64,000 nt of DNA from a virus: the IMG/VR virus record IMGVR_UViG_3300048583_000034, positions 35,181 through 99,180 of that record. One strand, given 5' to 3'. A model generated the notes under the pieces. That model had not been told where the DNA came from. It worked only from the letters and a program-made list of their open reading frames with translations, and did no database searches. The translations under genes were made by a program, and so were the position numbers. This document shows positions 4,466-46,185 of the stretch, one piece after another. Positions within the stretch are counted from its first letter, which is position 1; the number at the start of each line of letters is the position of its first letter.

Positions 4466-4732
4466 ATGACTACTACAAAATTAGAACTTGGCGACTATGT
4501 CGAATATAGGGATTACCTCTTTGAGGTGATGATGGATAAAGAGGGTAAGGGAAGATTGGAATTGGAACATACAAAAGATTGGTATTATGGTGAAAGAATA
4601 CCGATGAACGAAGTAGACCAATCCCAATGTATGGTGGTTAGAGATCATAAAAATTGGAAATGGTCTCCAAAGCAAAAAATGCATGGTTTCGGGTGGTCAA
4701 TAAATCCAAGATATCAATATATCCCAGCATGA
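4466..4732 (+). CDS. Hypothetical protein, 88 aa
   Basis: A charged, aromatic-rich small protein (LGDYVEYRDYLFEVM) that starts two bases after the preceding stop. Its stop overlaps the start of the 2H phosphoesterase gene (ATGA), so the two are probably translationally coupled. No family recognised. Confidence 0.65.
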   Translation: MTTTKLELGDYVEYRDYLFEVMMDKEGKGRLELEHTKDWYYGERIPMNEVDQSQCMVVRDHKNWKWSPKQKMHGFGWSINPRYQYIPA

Positions 4733-5271
4733 AGTTCACACAACTCTTAAGAAGTGTTCTCTTAACTGAGAACTCCAAACCAAGATCTTATTCTTGTCTA
4801 ATGGTAGATTGCACAGACTTTGAAAAACACTTGAAAGTTATTCAAGATGGAATCGAGAAACAAGATCTATATGATGAAGAAGGATATGGTCTTGAGAAAG
4901 AACCACACATCACAGTTCTCTATGGGATTCATGAACAAGATCCAACAGTTGTAAAACAATCTTTGGATCTTGTTCCGGTTGAGTATGAACTCACTGGACT
5001 CTCATTATTTGAAAATGATAAGTATGATGTCCTCAAATGTTCAGTCAAATCCAAAGATCTAAAAGCTTTGAATAAGCAATGTTGTGAGAACCTAGAGTTC
5101 ACCAACGATTATCCTGATTATATCCCTCACCTAACGGTGGCATATTTGAATCCGGGTGCTGGTAAGAAATATGTTAAGACGAAGTCCGAAGGATTCGGTA
5201 AAGAATATAAGTCGGGAAAATTCATCTTCTCAAATAAAGATTCGAAGAAAACAAATTGGACTATCTCATAA
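4729..5271 (+). CDS. 2H phosphoesterase (LigT / Acb1-like) with capsid-targeting-like N-terminus
   Basis: A 180-residue protein with the two HxT motifs of the 2H phosphoesterase fold: PHITVLYG near residue 63 and PHLTVAYL near residue 138. Family members act on 2'-5' or 2',3'-cyclic phosphates. They include LigT-type RNA ligases and T4 Acb1, which destroys CBASS cyclic nucleotide signals. The N-terminus MKFTQLLRSVLLTE resembles a T4 internal-protein targeting peptide ending in L-x-E. I chose the ATG at 4729 because it gives an ATGA overlap with the upstream gene and reveals this N-terminus. The substrate cannot be told from sequence. Confidence 0.8.
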   Translation: MKFTQLLRSVLLTENSKPRSYSCLMVDCTDFEKHLKVIQDGIEKQDLYDEEGYGLEKEPHITVLYGIHEQDPTVVKQSLDLVPVEYELTGLSLFENDKYDVLKCSVKSKDLKALNKQCCENLEFTNDYPDYIPHLTVAYLNPGAGKKYVKTKSEGFGKEYKSGKFIFSNKDSKKTNWTIS

Positions 5272-8135: not shown

Positions 8136-8840
8136 GTGTTCAATAAAGTAACAATAAATGAAGAGGAGACAATTCGTAGGTATGGGTATCTACCAAAAGA
8201 GAATAACCGAGACGGTAATAAAATGTGTGTTGTTAAATGCACACACTGTTCAAAGTTAATAGATCGTCAGTTTTCTAATAAAGATTCTATGCATAGTTGT
8301 CCTATAATAGATGGACAAAATAAAAAATGTTTTAAGTGTAAAACTTGGAAAGATTATTCCCTTTTTGTAAAAAATAAAAAGGGAAGTGGTGGGGTGGGAA
8401 AATTGTGTAGAGAGTGTTATAATAACTATGATTGTGTTAAACTAGCGGATAAAAGAAAGAACGAAAGATTGAAGTCGTCATTCACCAATGATCTCAATTT
8501 ATACTTATCTAAACGCGAGAGTCAGATCAAACATCAAGCCAAATATAGGGGACATGAATATGATTTAGATGTTGAATATGTTCGAGAATTGTGGGATACC
8601 CAAAATGGGAAATGTTATTACACCGGATTGGACATGATAGCAGATGGTAGAGTAAATGGCTTTCAGGGTTGGAATTGTCCATCATTTGATAGAAAGTCTC
8701 CAGAGTTGGGTTATGTAAAAGGAAATGTGGTGTGGTGTTGTTTTGCAGTGAATTCGTTTAAACAAAGCTTAAGCGAATCAGAATTTGGGGAAAAAATTAA
8801 ATCTATAACATGGCCATTTTTAAACAAATCAAATTTGTAG
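8136..8840 (+). CDS. HNH-type homing endonuclease
   Basis: A 234-residue protein with two N-terminal cysteine pairs (CTHC, CFKC) and a C-terminal His-Me finger nuclease: GKCYYTGLDM, SFDRKSPELGY and GNVVWCCFAVNSFKQ. The start is GTG, five bases after a class B TAAATA box; the ATG two bases earlier hits a stop. It splits the dUTPase operon. Confidence 0.78.
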   Translation: MFNKVTINEEETIRRYGYLPKENNRDGNKMCVVKCTHCSKLIDRQFSNKDSMHSCPIIDGQNKKCFKCKTWKDYSLFVKNKKGSGGVGKLCRECYNNYDCVKLADKRKNERLKSSFTNDLNLYLSKRESQIKHQAKYRGHEYDLDVEYVRELWDTQNGKCYYTGLDMIADGRVNGFQGWNCPSFDRKSPELGYVKGNVVWCCFAVNSFKQSLSESEFGEKIKSITWPFLNKSNL

Positions 8841-31500: not shown

Positions 31501-31725
31501 TCAGTCTTGTTTGTAATATCTCTTAGCATTAACCTTCTTCTTAAATCCTCTCCACCCTCCACCGACACGAACAAAGTATTTATAATCGGGATAATCTTTG
31601 GGGTTATCTAATTGCATGATACCATTTTCTGTGGACATATCAAAAGTGATATGAAATTCATCACGAAGTTTCCAATCTTCCACGAAGAATCCAGAATCAT
31701 TAGGATCTATTTGATAATCTCGCAT
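31501..31725 (-). CDS. Hypothetical protein, 74 aa
   Basis: Class A start with CATACT, six bases, ATG. FHITFDMSTENGIMQL and GGGWRGFKKK. It shares FDMS and the Gly-Trp end with the protein at 31957, so the two may be distant paralogues. Confidence 0.65.
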   Translation of the reverse strand: MRDYQIDPNDSGFFVEDWKLRDEFHITFDMSTENGIMQLDNPKDYPDYKYFVRVGGGWRGFKKKVNAKRYYKQD

Positions 31726-37820: not shown

Positions 37821-37910
37821 TGGTTCATGTGAGGAGAATTGAACTCCCGTATACCTTGTAAGGGCTTTCCATTTATAAAACAGAGACTCTGACCACTGAG
37901 TTACACATGA
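37821..37910 (-). tRNA. Class II tRNA with TAT anticodon
   Basis: Perfect acceptor TCATGTG/CACATGA, discriminator A and encoded CCA. D arm ACTC/GAGT, anticodon stem TCTGT/ATGGA around TTTATAA (TAT, Ile AUA), T stem GGGAG/CTCCT. The variable arm is about 19 nt with a CCTT/AAGG stem, normal for Leu, Ser or Tyr but not Ile. Identity uncertain. Confidence 0.75.
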
Positions 37911-37917
37911 CATTTTG

Positions 37918-38025
37918 TGGGACCGCTTGGATTCGAACCAAGGACCAAGGGTTTATTTTAAACTATCTCAATTTAATGCGATAGCTCCAAAGAGACCCCT
38001 GCTCTAACCACTGAGCTACAATCCC
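37918..38025 (-). tRNA. tRNA-Met/Ile2(CAT) interrupted by a 35-nt insertion
   Basis: Acceptor GGGATTG/CGGTCCC, D arm GCTC/GAGC and T arm CTTGG/CCAAG are normal. The anticodon loop is split by 35 nt (37957-37991) after position 34. Joining the exons gives stem GGGGT/ACCCT and loop CTCATAA, a canonical CAT loop. The insert starts TTT, ends AAA and carries a CTATC/GATAG hairpin with a TTAAATTGA loop. A boundary shift of one or two bases would instead give CTT. Confidence 0.72.
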
Positions 38026-38044
38026 TTTAATATCAGTTAACTCG

Positions 38045-38073
38045 TATTCGTGTCATACGACTATATTACTCTA
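38045..38073 (-). promoter_or_regulatory. Class A promoter for the interrupted tRNA unit, with 7-codon ORF
   Basis: TAAACACTAG, two bases, TAATAT, six bases, then ATG opening only MTRIRVN before the tRNA starts. A leaderless mini-ORF at the 5' end of a tRNA transcript is unusual. Confidence 0.65.
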
Positions 38074-38274
38074 GTGTTTAAAGAATCCACGTTCAACCAT
38101 TTTACATGATCGAATCTCTTTAAACCCATCTGATCGTTTCCAATCGCGAACAGTAGCGCCACCACCCAGAGGTGATAGTTCTACTTTACCATCACACACA
38201 TAACAATAATCCCAGTGAATAGGATGATCTTCTGGTAGGATTTCTTCTCCTTCTAATATGCCTTCGAGAATCAT
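38071..38274 (-). CDS. Hypothetical protein, 67 aa
   Basis: Follows the second interrupted tRNA by 14 nt. CYVCDGKVELSPLGGGATVR suggests a small zinc or beta fold. Its TAG stop lies within the next class A box. Confidence 0.65.
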   Translation of the reverse strand: MILEGILEGEEILPEDHPIHWDYCYVCDGKVELSPLGGGATVRDWKRSDGFKEIRSCKMVERGFFKH

Positions 38275-38287
38275 ATGATTATTATTT

Positions 38288-38399
38288 TGGTATGCGCGGT
38301 GGGACTCGAACCCACAGATTACAGATTTTTTGGAATGGATTCTAATTAAGTATCCACTCGGAAAAAGTCTGCTGCCTATACCAATTCGGCTACGCGCAC
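38288..38399 (-). tRNA. Interrupted tRNA, Leu(TAA) or Lys(TTT), with 35-nt insertion
   Basis: Acceptor GTGCGCG/CGCGCAT, D arm GCC/GGC, T arm GTGGG/CCCAC, discriminator A and encoded CCA. The anticodon loop holds 35 extra nt (38330-38364). Removal gives stem GCAGA/TCTGT and a 7-nt loop. Because the borders are T and A runs, the joined loop could read TAA, TTA or TTT; the boundary used for the CAT tRNA gives TAA. The insert has a TGGAT/ATCCA hairpin with a TTAATTAGA loop, like the first one. Confidence 0.72.
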
Positions 38400-42180: not shown

Positions 42181-42699
42181 TTAATAAGTTTCAGACCAAG
42201 TCTCGCCAGCAATATCCGATAAAATATAATCAGCTTCTTGAAATTGTTGGAATCTATTTCCCATGTAAATTCCAACGGCATCATTTATGGCACCGAATAA
42301 ACTTTTATGGGTGGAGTGTGTATTGTAATCTAGTGAAGGTGGTTCCCAATAAGAACCAGAATCATATGTTTCATAACCAACCTCGAATTGTCCATCCGCT
42401 GTCTCGAAAATGATAACACCGTCCAAAATCAGAGTATAAAGACTGTCATAAGACCCCAAGGAATCATCGACCTTATTGAATTGATCCTCGATATTCATAC
42501 CTTTAAGAAATTCATTGTACGAATCTTTGAGACTATCGAAATATCGAACCCTACTAATGATGGAACGAATTTCAAATTCGTCTTCCGTTCCATAATTAGG
42601 TTGCGCCATATGCCAATCCCTTTCAGGAGTTTTGACAAACAGTGCCTCCCAAGATGAATCATCATCTTCGAATCGTTCAACCATGAACTCAATTTCCAT
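42181..42699 (-). CDS. Acidic protein, 172 aa
   Basis: The ATG at 42699 is six bases after TACAAT of a class A promoter. Many Asp, Glu, Tyr and Phe. No family recognised. Confidence 0.7.
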   Translation of the reverse strand: MEIEFMVERFEDDDSSWEALFVKTPERDWHMAQPNYGTEDEFEIRSIISRVRYFDSLKDSYNEFLKGMNIEDQFNKVDDSLGSYDSLYTLILDGVIIFETADGQFEVGYETYDSGSYWEPPSLDYNTHSTHKSLFGAINDAVGIYMGNRFQQFQEADYILSDIAGETWSETY

Positions 42700-42796
42700 G
42701 TTTAGATTGTATCCTAGTGTTTTATTGTGTGGGCAATTATTTGTGGATATACTCAAAAATCCACAAATAATTCAACGTAATTTATTAAATAATAAT

Positions 42797-43558
42797 ATGA
42801 CTGAATTGGAAAAATGTATCGAGGCAGAATCAAACTATCAAAGAACCTATTCCAAACCTAGGGGAAAACAATCTTTGGTAAAATTATTGAAGAATGGTAG
42901 TTATATTTTGCCAGAAAAGGAAGAGACTATTATTGCTTATATGATCAACAATAAAGATGTGGATTATCCACATTTAGTTGATATGTTTAATATCCCTAGG
43001 CCAATTTTAGAAAGATTGAGAGCGAAGAATAATCTACCACCTATCAAAAAGAAAAATGTCGAGAGTTTTCAAAAAATATTGTTATTAGAATCTAAAAGAA
43101 AATGTCCAAGTTGTCAGCATATAAAACCACTGAGCGAATGGTATACGAATAATCCAAGTAGGTGCATAGAATGTGAAAAGCTTAGAGGCCCCATTAAACT
43201 TTTAACTAAGCAAAAGAAGAACAATTCTTCTCTGGAAAATTATTTAAATAATAAATTAGTAGAGTGTAAACAGAGGAAAAAACTTCCCACATGCGCTCTG
43301 ACCTTAGAAGATTTATTGTGCCAATACTCTAAACAAAAAGGTTTATGTTACTATAGCGGGAGGGTAATGGAATTAGCATTAAAAACGGATACCGTCAACT
43401 CTCTATCTATCGATAGAATCGATTCTAGAATAGGATACAATAGAGACAACATCGTATTGTGTTGCTCTATTGTAAACTTTATGAAACAAGAATATCCAGT
43501 AGAACTCTTCTTGAAGATGTGTAACGAAATCAGCCTTCTACATCCTCTGGAATGTTGA
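42797..43558 (+). CDS. HNH-type homing endonuclease
   Basis: A 253-residue protein. CPSCQHIK and CIECEKL zinc pairs; nuclease core GLCYYSGRVM, SIDRIDSRIGYNRDN and IVLCCSIVNFMKQ. TAAATA is five bases before the ATG. The 3' end overlaps a convergent gene by 29 nt. Confidence 0.82.
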   Translation: MTELEKCIEAESNYQRTYSKPRGKQSLVKLLKNGSYILPEKEETIIAYMINNKDVDYPHLVDMFNIPRPILERLRAKNNLPPIKKKNVESFQKILLLESKRKCPSCQHIKPLSEWYTNNPSRCIECEKLRGPIKLLTKQKKNNSSLENYLNNKLVECKQRKKLPTCALTLEDLLCQYSKQKGLCYYSGRVMELALKTDTVNSLSIDRIDSRIGYNRDNIVLCCSIVNFMKQEYPVELFLKMCNEISLLHPLEC

Positions 43559-45555: not shown

Positions 45556-46185
45556 ATGATCAAACAATCTAAACCAAGGAAAATTTTTTCGGAAGAAATG
45601 AAATTAGAAATAATGGAGTTTGAAAAGAATAATACTATTTCGGATACCTGTAAAAAATTTGACGTATCTAAATACACCATCAATAAATGGAAAGGATGGG
45701 TCAGGAAAAACGCTTCCGAGTCTAATAAGAGATGGTATTCCAATAACGGCAAAGAGTATTATTCAGATCCACTCAATAAACAAAAGCATTTAGAGAGTAG
45801 TAGAAAACGTAGGAAAAATTTTCCAACCGAAGGGAAAGAAAGAAGTAAGATTTATAATAGTAAATGCAGATTTAAAAAATTGGCAGGATATGCCAATAGA
45901 ACTTTTATTAGAAAAAATAAACAGGATTTTTATGTTATAACTGCTGGAGATCTTTGGAAGATCGCAAAGAAACAAAGATTGATATGTCCTTTAACAGGAA
46001 TAAGATTGAATGCGTCTAATATGTCAGTGGATCATATTATTCCAATAAGCAAAGGAGGAACCAATCATCCATCCAATATTAGATTGGTTCAGAAATGGGT
46101 TAACATAATGTTACAAGATAAAACCGACGAAGAATTTTTCTTAATGTGTCGAACTATCACAACTTATCAAGAAAGTATTTCATAA
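45556..46185 (+). CDS. HNH homing endonuclease with N-terminal HTH
   Basis: A 209-residue protein. Residues 30-50 (ISDTCKKFDVSKYTINKWKG) are a helix-turn-helix. The C-terminus has CPLTGIRLNASNMSVDHIIP and GGTNHPSNIRLVQKWVN, an HNH core. TAAATA is six bases before the ATG. Confidence 0.87.
   Translation: MIKQSKPRKIFSEEMKLEIMEFEKNNTISDTCKKFDVSKYTINKWKGWVRKNASESNKRWYSNNGKEYYSDPLNKQKHLESSRKRRKNFPTEGKERSKIYNSKCRFKKLAGYANRTFIRKNKQDFYVITAGDLWKIAKKQRLICPLTGIRLNASNMSVDHIIPISKGGTNHPSNIRLVQKWVNIMLQDKTDEEFFLMCRTITTYQESIS

What the first reader, a model, noticed from the sequence alone, without database searches (positions are those of the whole stretch)
37918..38399. Two tRNA genes split by 35-nt insertions in the anticodon loop: possible mini-introns
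Seen: both tRNAs have intact acceptor, D and T arms, and each carries exactly 35 extra nt in the anticodon loop. Removing 37957-37991 restores stem GGGGT/ACCCT with loop CTCATAA, the standard CAT loop. Removing 38330-38364 restores GCAGA/TCTGT with a normal 7-nt loop. The inserts share a build: TTT start, GAG, a 5-bp hairpin with a TTAA..TTGA-like loop, and an A-rich end. TTT/AAA pairing between two bulges looks like a relaxed bulge-helix-bulge. Known: bacterial tRNA introns are group I or II and hundreds of nt long. Inference: a new class of very small tRNA intron, removed by an unknown enzyme.
Basis: partly seen in the sequence, partly recalled or inferred. Interest (0 to 1): 0.92.

Follow-up and report, generated by a model that had tools for sequence, protein, structure and literature searches.

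The report
Hairpin mini-introns in phage tRNA genes
Two tRNA genes of a large T4-like phage each carry an extra 35-base hairpin exactly inside the anticodon; because the rest of each tRNA is intact, relatives exist without the insert, and unrelated phages carry similar inserts, these are probably tiny removable introns of a kind not described in bacteria.

Summary
Two minus-strand tRNAs carry exactly 35 extra nt in the anticodon loop. Phage relatives without the insert identify them as tRNA-Ile2(CAU), CTC|35|ATAA, and tRNA-Leu(UAA), CTT|35|AAAA. Both are split between positions 34 and 35. Acceptor and anticodon stems are fully paired, and each insert folds far better than shuffled sequence.

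Independent phage contigs carry similar 26-37 nt hairpin inserts at the same site in tRNA-Ile2 and tRNA-Leu(UAA), and at neighbouring loop positions in other tRNAs. Four phages carry two or three such tRNAs each. A scan of 84,980 bacterial and archaeal genomes for the tRNA-Ile2 version found no bacterial case.

The best reading is small introns excised as hairpins and resealed to make working tRNAs. Excision itself is not shown and the enzyme is unknown. The cut sites do not fit the archaeal bulge-helix-bulge rule, and no group I or II intron was detected. Three of the phages encode RNA ligases, but ligases are no denser than in control contigs, and none was found in this 99-kb fragment.

'Enigmatic' tRNA introns were reported in Lak phages (PMC6784885), so this is a new variant of a known kind.

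The parts
37918..38025 (-). tRNA-Ile2(CAU) gene (108 nt) interrupted in the anticodon loop; no encoded CCA
   Evidence: Rfam RF00005 56.2 bits; 7/7 acceptor and 5/5 anticodon-stem pairs; insert-free homologues in Acinetobacter phages PhT2 and AB1I1M-1
37957..37991 (-). 35-nt insert (putative mini-intron) between C34 and A35: TTTGGAGCTATCGCATTAAATTGAGATAGTTTAAA
   Evidence: absent from aligned homologues; hairpin -9.9 kcal/mol, better than 200/200 shuffles, p 0.010
37992..38025 (-). 5' exon of tRNA-Ile2, ending CTC (nt 32-34)
37918..37956 (-). 3' exon of tRNA-Ile2, beginning ATAA (nt 35-38)
38288..38399 (-). tRNA-Leu(UAA) gene with short variable loop and encoded CCA, interrupted in the anticodon loop
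   Evidence: Rfam RF00005 53.1 bits; insert-free homologues Mx1, P-RSM6, Ahp1, Acibel004
38330..38364 (-). 35-nt insert (putative mini-intron) between U34 and A35: TTTCCGAGTGGATACTTAATTAGAATCCATTCCAA
   Evidence: absent from aligned homologues; hairpin -10.5 kcal/mol, better than 200/200 shuffles, p 0.006; similar 27-nt insert at the same site in L197
38365..38399 (-). 5' exon of tRNA-Leu(UAA), ending CTT (nt 32-34)
38291..38329 (-). 3' exon of tRNA-Leu(UAA), beginning AAAA (nt 35-38)

Best explanation
Each insert is a very small tRNA intron. Shown: an intact tRNA is interrupted inside its anticodon, and removing the insert restores a standard tRNA-Ile2(CAU) or tRNA-Leu(UAA) that exists uninterrupted in other phages. 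Inferred: in the precursor the insert extends the anticodon arm into a hairpin (anticodon stem, short inner helix, mismatch, 7-9 bp hairpin). An RNA endonuclease cuts both sides of the hairpin in the anticodon loop, and an RNA ligase of the phage tRNA-repair type (Rnl1/Rnl2 with end-healing enzymes, or RtcB) or a host ligase joins the halves. A plausible benefit, not tested, is that the unspliced tRNA cannot be cut by host anticodon nucleases.
For: Both tRNAs keep 7/7 acceptor and 5/5 anticodon-stem pairs and score well as tRNAs. Insert-free homologues align at exactly the predicted boundaries. Six further independent tRNA-Ile2 genes carry 28-37 nt inserts at 34/35 (L149, L150, L151=L153, L152, L165, L168, the last ambiguous with 36/37), and one tRNA-Leu(UAA) gene carries a very similar 27-nt insert (L197). 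For L150 and L111 insert-free homologues were also found (Pectobacterium phage Amona; Enterococcus phage Efs 1-1-1). The tRNA model applied to nine of these contigs found further interrupted tRNAs (G015 three, G002 two, G008 two), all interrupted in the anticodon loop or arm. Of 14 inserts, 11 fold better than shuffles at p<0.05; combined p about 4e-14. No bacterial case of the tRNA-Ile2 version in 84,980 species genomes. RtcB, Rnl2 plus Rnl1, and HNH-Rnl2 with a 2H phosphoesterase are encoded in G015, G002 and G008. UUA is this phage's commonest Leu codon and AUA is used.
Against: No RNA evidence of excision. No RNA ligase or splicing endonuclease was found in the 99-kb fragment of this phage. 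RNA ligases are no denser in insert-bearing contigs than in control tRNA-bearing contigs (PF09414 over cut-off: 11 contigs in 5.15 Mb against 5 in 2.41 Mb). The cut sites have no constant geometry on the helix across members (34/35, 36/37, 33/34), and there is no common sequence motif. L165, L168 and G015c hairpins are not significant. The 34/35 preference is partly built into the search patterns.
Confidence: 0.7

Rival explanations
1. Unspliced decoy: the extended anticodon arm is kept and acts as bait or as a resistant substrate for host anticodon nucleases, and never decodes.
For: A stable hairpin arm; host anticodon nucleases and phage counter-measures are well known (PMC7824862; PMC10264068 listed).
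Against: A decoy does not need the mature anticodon loop to be restored exactly at a boundary where insert-free homologues exist, nor intact acceptor and T arms. No fixed loop sequence is presented.
Confidence: 0.1
2. Dead tRNA genes: a short hairpin element jumped or slipped into each tRNA and inactivated it.
For: Phage tRNA genes are gained and lost often (general knowledge); inserts differ in sequence between phages.
Against: All other arms are fully paired. The inserts have no second copy in the 99-kb genome. Same-site inserts recur in unrelated phages, two or three per phage, always in the anticodon loop or arm.
Confidence: 0.1
3. Archaeal/eukaryotic-type intron with a bulge-helix-bulge, cut by an EndA/TSEN-like enzyme.
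For: Similar size and place to archaeal tRNA introns; tRNA1 has 3/4 pairs in the place of the central helix.
Against: tRNA2 has 1/4, other members 0-3/4. No tRNA intron endonuclease among Pfam matches shown for this genome (only the first 25 of 33 families shown). The phage carries T4-type head genes.
Confidence: 0.05
4. Self-splicing intron, or a shrunken remnant of a group I intron; group I introns are known in tRNA-Leu(UAA) and tRNA-Ile(CAU).
For: Bacterial tRNA-Ile2 and other tRNAs can carry group I introns (PMC8450103; PMC4090602).
Against: No group I or II match even at E<=1; 35 nt is too small for the catalytic core; no conserved core sequence across members.
Confidence: 0.03

Closest known systems
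tRNA introns of Lak megaphages (Devoto et al. 2019, PMC6784885)
   Same: Introns of unknown mechanism in phage tRNAs, several per genome, seen by aligning interrupted and uninterrupted genes
   Different: A Lak tRNA-Thr intron is described as itself encoding a possible tRNA; no 27-37 nt hairpin class or 34/35 site is described in the text I could read. Lak sequences were not compared here.
Archaeal and eukaryotic protein-spliced tRNA introns (EndA/TSEN, RtcB or Trl1)
   Same: Short inserts in the anticodon loop; likely cut-and-ligate removal
   Different: No bulge-helix-bulge at the fixed sites; sites at 34/35 rather than the canonical 37/38; bacterial-virus setting
Group I introns of bacterial tRNA-Leu(UAA), tRNA-Ile2, tRNA-fMet
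   Same: Interrupt anticodon loops of the same tRNAs
   Different: Over 200 nt, self-splicing, conserved core; here 35 nt, no core
T4-type tRNA repair (anticodon nuclease damage sealed by Pnkp and Rnl1/Rnl2)
   Same: Would use the same joining chemistry on a cut anticodon loop
   Different: Repair restores a nick; here a segment would be taken out first
tRNA introns of haloarchaeal virus HGTV-1 (mentioned in PMC8651126)
   Same: Virus with many tRNAs, and Rnl2/RtcB ligases proposed to act on tRNA introns
   Different: Archaeal host, which owns a tRNA splicing endonuclease

Membership tests
tRNA gene with intron | Full tRNA outside the insert | tested here: met
   RF00005 56.2 and 53.1 bits; acceptor 7/7, anticodon stem 5/5
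tRNA gene with intron | Uninterrupted homologue defines the boundaries | tested here: met
tRNA gene with intron | Excision and joining in the cell | not testable with these tools
   no RNA data
Archaeal/eukaryotic bulge-helix-bulge tRNA intron | 3-nt bulge, 4-bp helix, 3-nt bulge placed at the cut sites | tested here: not met
   central helix 3/4 (tRNA1) and 1/4 (tRNA2), 0-3/4 in the other twelve
Archaeal/eukaryotic bulge-helix-bulge tRNA intron | EndA/TSEN-like endonuclease encoded | tested here: inconclusive
   not among listed Pfam matches of the 99-kb fragment (list cut at 25 of 33 families); fragment incomplete, host unknown
Group I / group II intron | Conserved catalytic core (Rfam match) | tested here: not met
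   no match at gathering or at E<=1
Phage RNA-ligase-dependent splicing or repair | RNA ligase encoded by the same virus | tested here: inconclusive
   present in G015, G002, G008, G016, not found in this fragment, no enrichment over controls
Lak-phage tRNA introns | Sequence or structural relation to the Lak introns | not tested

The most novel reading that the evidence does not exclude
Many tailed phages of bacteria carry a previously undescribed class of 26-37 nt hairpin tRNA introns in the anticodon loop, removed by a phage-encoded cut-and-ligate tRNA splicing system unlike EndA/TSEN and unlike ribozymes, which would be the first protein-type tRNA splicing in bacteria.
Probability: 0.4. 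Interest if true: 0.92.

Novelty: new variant of a known kind. Interest (0 to 1): 0.76.

Why it matters
Bacteria are thought to remove tRNA introns only by self-splicing ribozymes. Hairpin introns of about 30 nt across unrelated phages would need a protein splicing pathway in bacterial cells, would give phage RNA ligases (RtcB, Rnl2, HNH-Rnl2) a job besides repair, and would explain why standard tRNA finders miss these genes. It also turns the 'enigmatic' phage tRNA introns into something testable, with insert-free homologues as controls.

Tried and rejected
Lys(UUU) or Lys(CUU) identity for the two tRNAs (considered from the loop alone; ARAGORN called Lys and Phe): rejected by homologues. Repeat or mobile palindrome: no second copy of either insert in the 99-kb genome. 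Relatives through the neighbouring protein and gp23 in cultured phages: nothing found. RNA ligase enrichment: not seen after allowing for contig length. A gene shared by all four phages with several interrupted tRNAs: only HNH/endonuclease VII-type proteins, ordinary in phage genomes; a Vsr-like/DUF559 endonuclease lies beside the ligase in G015 and G002 but is absent from the others. A general 34/35 rule: rejected, since 33/34 and 36/37 cases exist and L111, first taken as Val at 34/35, is Thr(UGU) at 36/37 by its homologue. Chance pattern matches: many scan hits were neighbouring normal tRNAs and were discarded by acceptor and stem pairing.

Full report
What is there. The window is bases 35181-99180 of a 99,180-base viral record with 27 tRNA matches. 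It encodes Gp23-type capsid and Gp20-type portal proteins and rIIA/rIIB-like proteins, so it is a fragment of a T4-like tailed phage. On the minus strand, between small genes, lie two tRNAs with 35 extra nt in the anticodon loop. The Rfam tRNA model finds both over its full length. ARAGORN without its intron option does not list them.

Identity. tRNA1 is tRNA-Ile2(CAU): its arms match insert-free CAU tRNAs of Acinetobacter phages PhT2 and AB1I1M-1 and of Pectobacterium phage Amona, and the missing stretch is exactly the insert. tRNA2 is tRNA-Leu(UAA): Mx1, P-RSM6 and Acibel004 read AGACTTAAAATCTG where the window reads AGACTT[35]AAAATCTG, and Ahp1 is the same but for AGATTT. Both inserts therefore split the anticodon between nt 34 and 35. 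This corrects ARAGORN's Lys and Phe calls for the two genes.

Not chance. Each insert folds better than all of 200 shuffles, and so does each whole gene. In a set of 14 comparable inserts from this and other phages, 11 are better than shuffles at p<0.05, with a combined p near 4e-14. The set was chosen partly by eye, so this figure is a guide and not a formal test. Neither insert has a second copy in the genome.

Related cases. These include several kinds of insert and some chance matches. Scans for the tRNA-Ile2 version at 34/35 gave six further distinct genes with 7/7 acceptor pairs. The Leu(UAA) scan gave one, L197, whose 27-nt insert TTTGAATACTTTTTAATAGAGTATTGA resembles the window's. Scans for other sites in CAU tRNAs gave single cases at 36/37 (L280) and 33/34 (L306), plus a different longer pair (L292, L325). 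Searching nine of these contigs with the tRNA model alone brought up further interrupted tRNAs that no pattern had asked for: G015 has three (Asn- or Thr-like, Leu, class II Leu), G002 two, G008 two. All are interrupted in the anticodon loop or arm. Insert-free homologues exist for L150 (Amona) and for L111 (Enterococcus phage Efs 1-1-1, tRNA-Thr(UGU), site 36/37).

Architecture. The common element is a shape rather than a sequence: anticodon stem, one to three unpaired nt, a 3-5 bp inner helix that includes loop nucleotides, a small mismatch, then a 7-9 bp hairpin. In tRNA2 and in L197 the same arrangement holds: U33-U34 pair with A38-A37, the first two intron nt pair with A36-A35, and the third with the last intron nt. 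Other members differ in detail, so the cut geometry is not constant.

Where it is found. The same tRNA-Ile2 pattern run over 84,980 bacterial and archaeal species genomes returned 57 stretches, of which one thaumarchaeal gene with a 20-nt insert is a real interrupted tRNA. Two others that pass the pairing filter are a neighbouring tRNA or a duplication with unresolved bases. So at this sensitivity the tRNA-Ile2 version is a viral feature.

Mechanism. Group I and II introns are not detected, and 35 nt is too small for them. A strict bulge-helix-bulge at the sites fixed by the homologues is not met. That leaves cutting by a protein and sealing by an RNA ligase. G015 encodes RtcB. G002 encodes an Rnl2-family and an Rnl1-family ligase. 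G008 encodes a ligase with an N-terminal HNH-like part beside an Acb1/2H phosphoesterase, and a Thg1. G016 has Rnl1. This phage's fragment encodes a tRNA nucleotidyltransferase and a 2H/Acb1-like protein but no recognised RNA ligase. Against a causal link, ligases are not denser in the insert-bearing contigs than in 38 control contigs with ordinary tRNAs. The ligase step is therefore inference. Shown: insertion, boundaries, intact arms, recurrence. Inferred: excision, ligation, benefit to the phage.

Why a phage might do this. UUA is this phage's commonest Leu codon and AUA makes 13 per thousand codons, so both tRNAs would be useful. An extended anticodon arm should not be a substrate for anticodon nucleases until spliced; this is a hypothesis only.

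Compared with what is known. Lak megaphages were the first phages reported with tRNA introns, called enigmatic (PMC6784885), and later work repeats this (PMC8346664). Reviews state that bacterial tRNA introns are group I (PMC4090602; also PMC8450103). I found no paper describing hairpin introns of this size in phage tRNAs, but the library lacks many journals and all preprints. I file it as a new variant of a known kind, tRNA introns, and as a member of no known mechanistic family.

Noticed in passing
L071, L117, L126, L147, L134, L107, L102, L082, L034, L084, L141, L066, L057, L050, L044 (tRNA genes): A second class of viral tRNA insert, 37-51 nt, with a hairpin followed by a conserved RCAGCAA motif (18 of 88 unique gaps against 0.8 expected), often between nt 28/29 or 29/30 of the anticodon stem and often starting TA. 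It looks like a separate intron family with a shared sequence element and deserves its own study.
   Followed up: partly
L063, L086, L098, L109, L113, L119, L139, L045, L076, L078, L133, L120, L089, L101: A third family of tRNA-like genes whose anticodon region holds a conserved element around AAGGRCC, inside a 5-bp stem such as CCTCC/GGAGG; 14 of 88 unique gaps. A normal anticodon loop could not be restored.
   Followed up: no
L158 301-405 (Aeromonas phage phiWae14, LC778249.1): A cultured phage has an unannotated Leu-like tRNA with a long anticodon-region insert containing a hairpin and ACGGCAAC, like the RCAGCAA class; its anticodon is unresolved. It could serve as a laboratory test case.
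   Followed up: partly
L365 17106-18869 (G008): Acb1-like 2H phosphoesterase next to an RNA ligase with an HNH-like N-terminal part, in a phage with two interrupted tRNAs; Thg1 lies nearby at L366 4572-5447.
   Followed up: partly
37821-37910 (-): A tRNA called Ile(UAU) has a 90-nt body with a long variable arm, unusual for tRNA-Ile.
   Followed up: no
L029 13513-13584 (outside the window, G000 31513-31584): A high-scoring tRNA with anticodon CUA, a possible amber suppressor, stands in the phage's tRNA array.
   Followed up: no
4654-5271 (+): 2H/Acb1-like phosphoesterase (PF23474, 30.7 bits) in the window phage: possible anti-CBASS or RNA end-healing function.
   Followed up: partly
42632-43558, 45556-46185, 8136-8840, 466-1011 and others: Many HNH / endonuclease VII-type homing endonuclease genes, several among the tRNA genes.
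   Followed up: no
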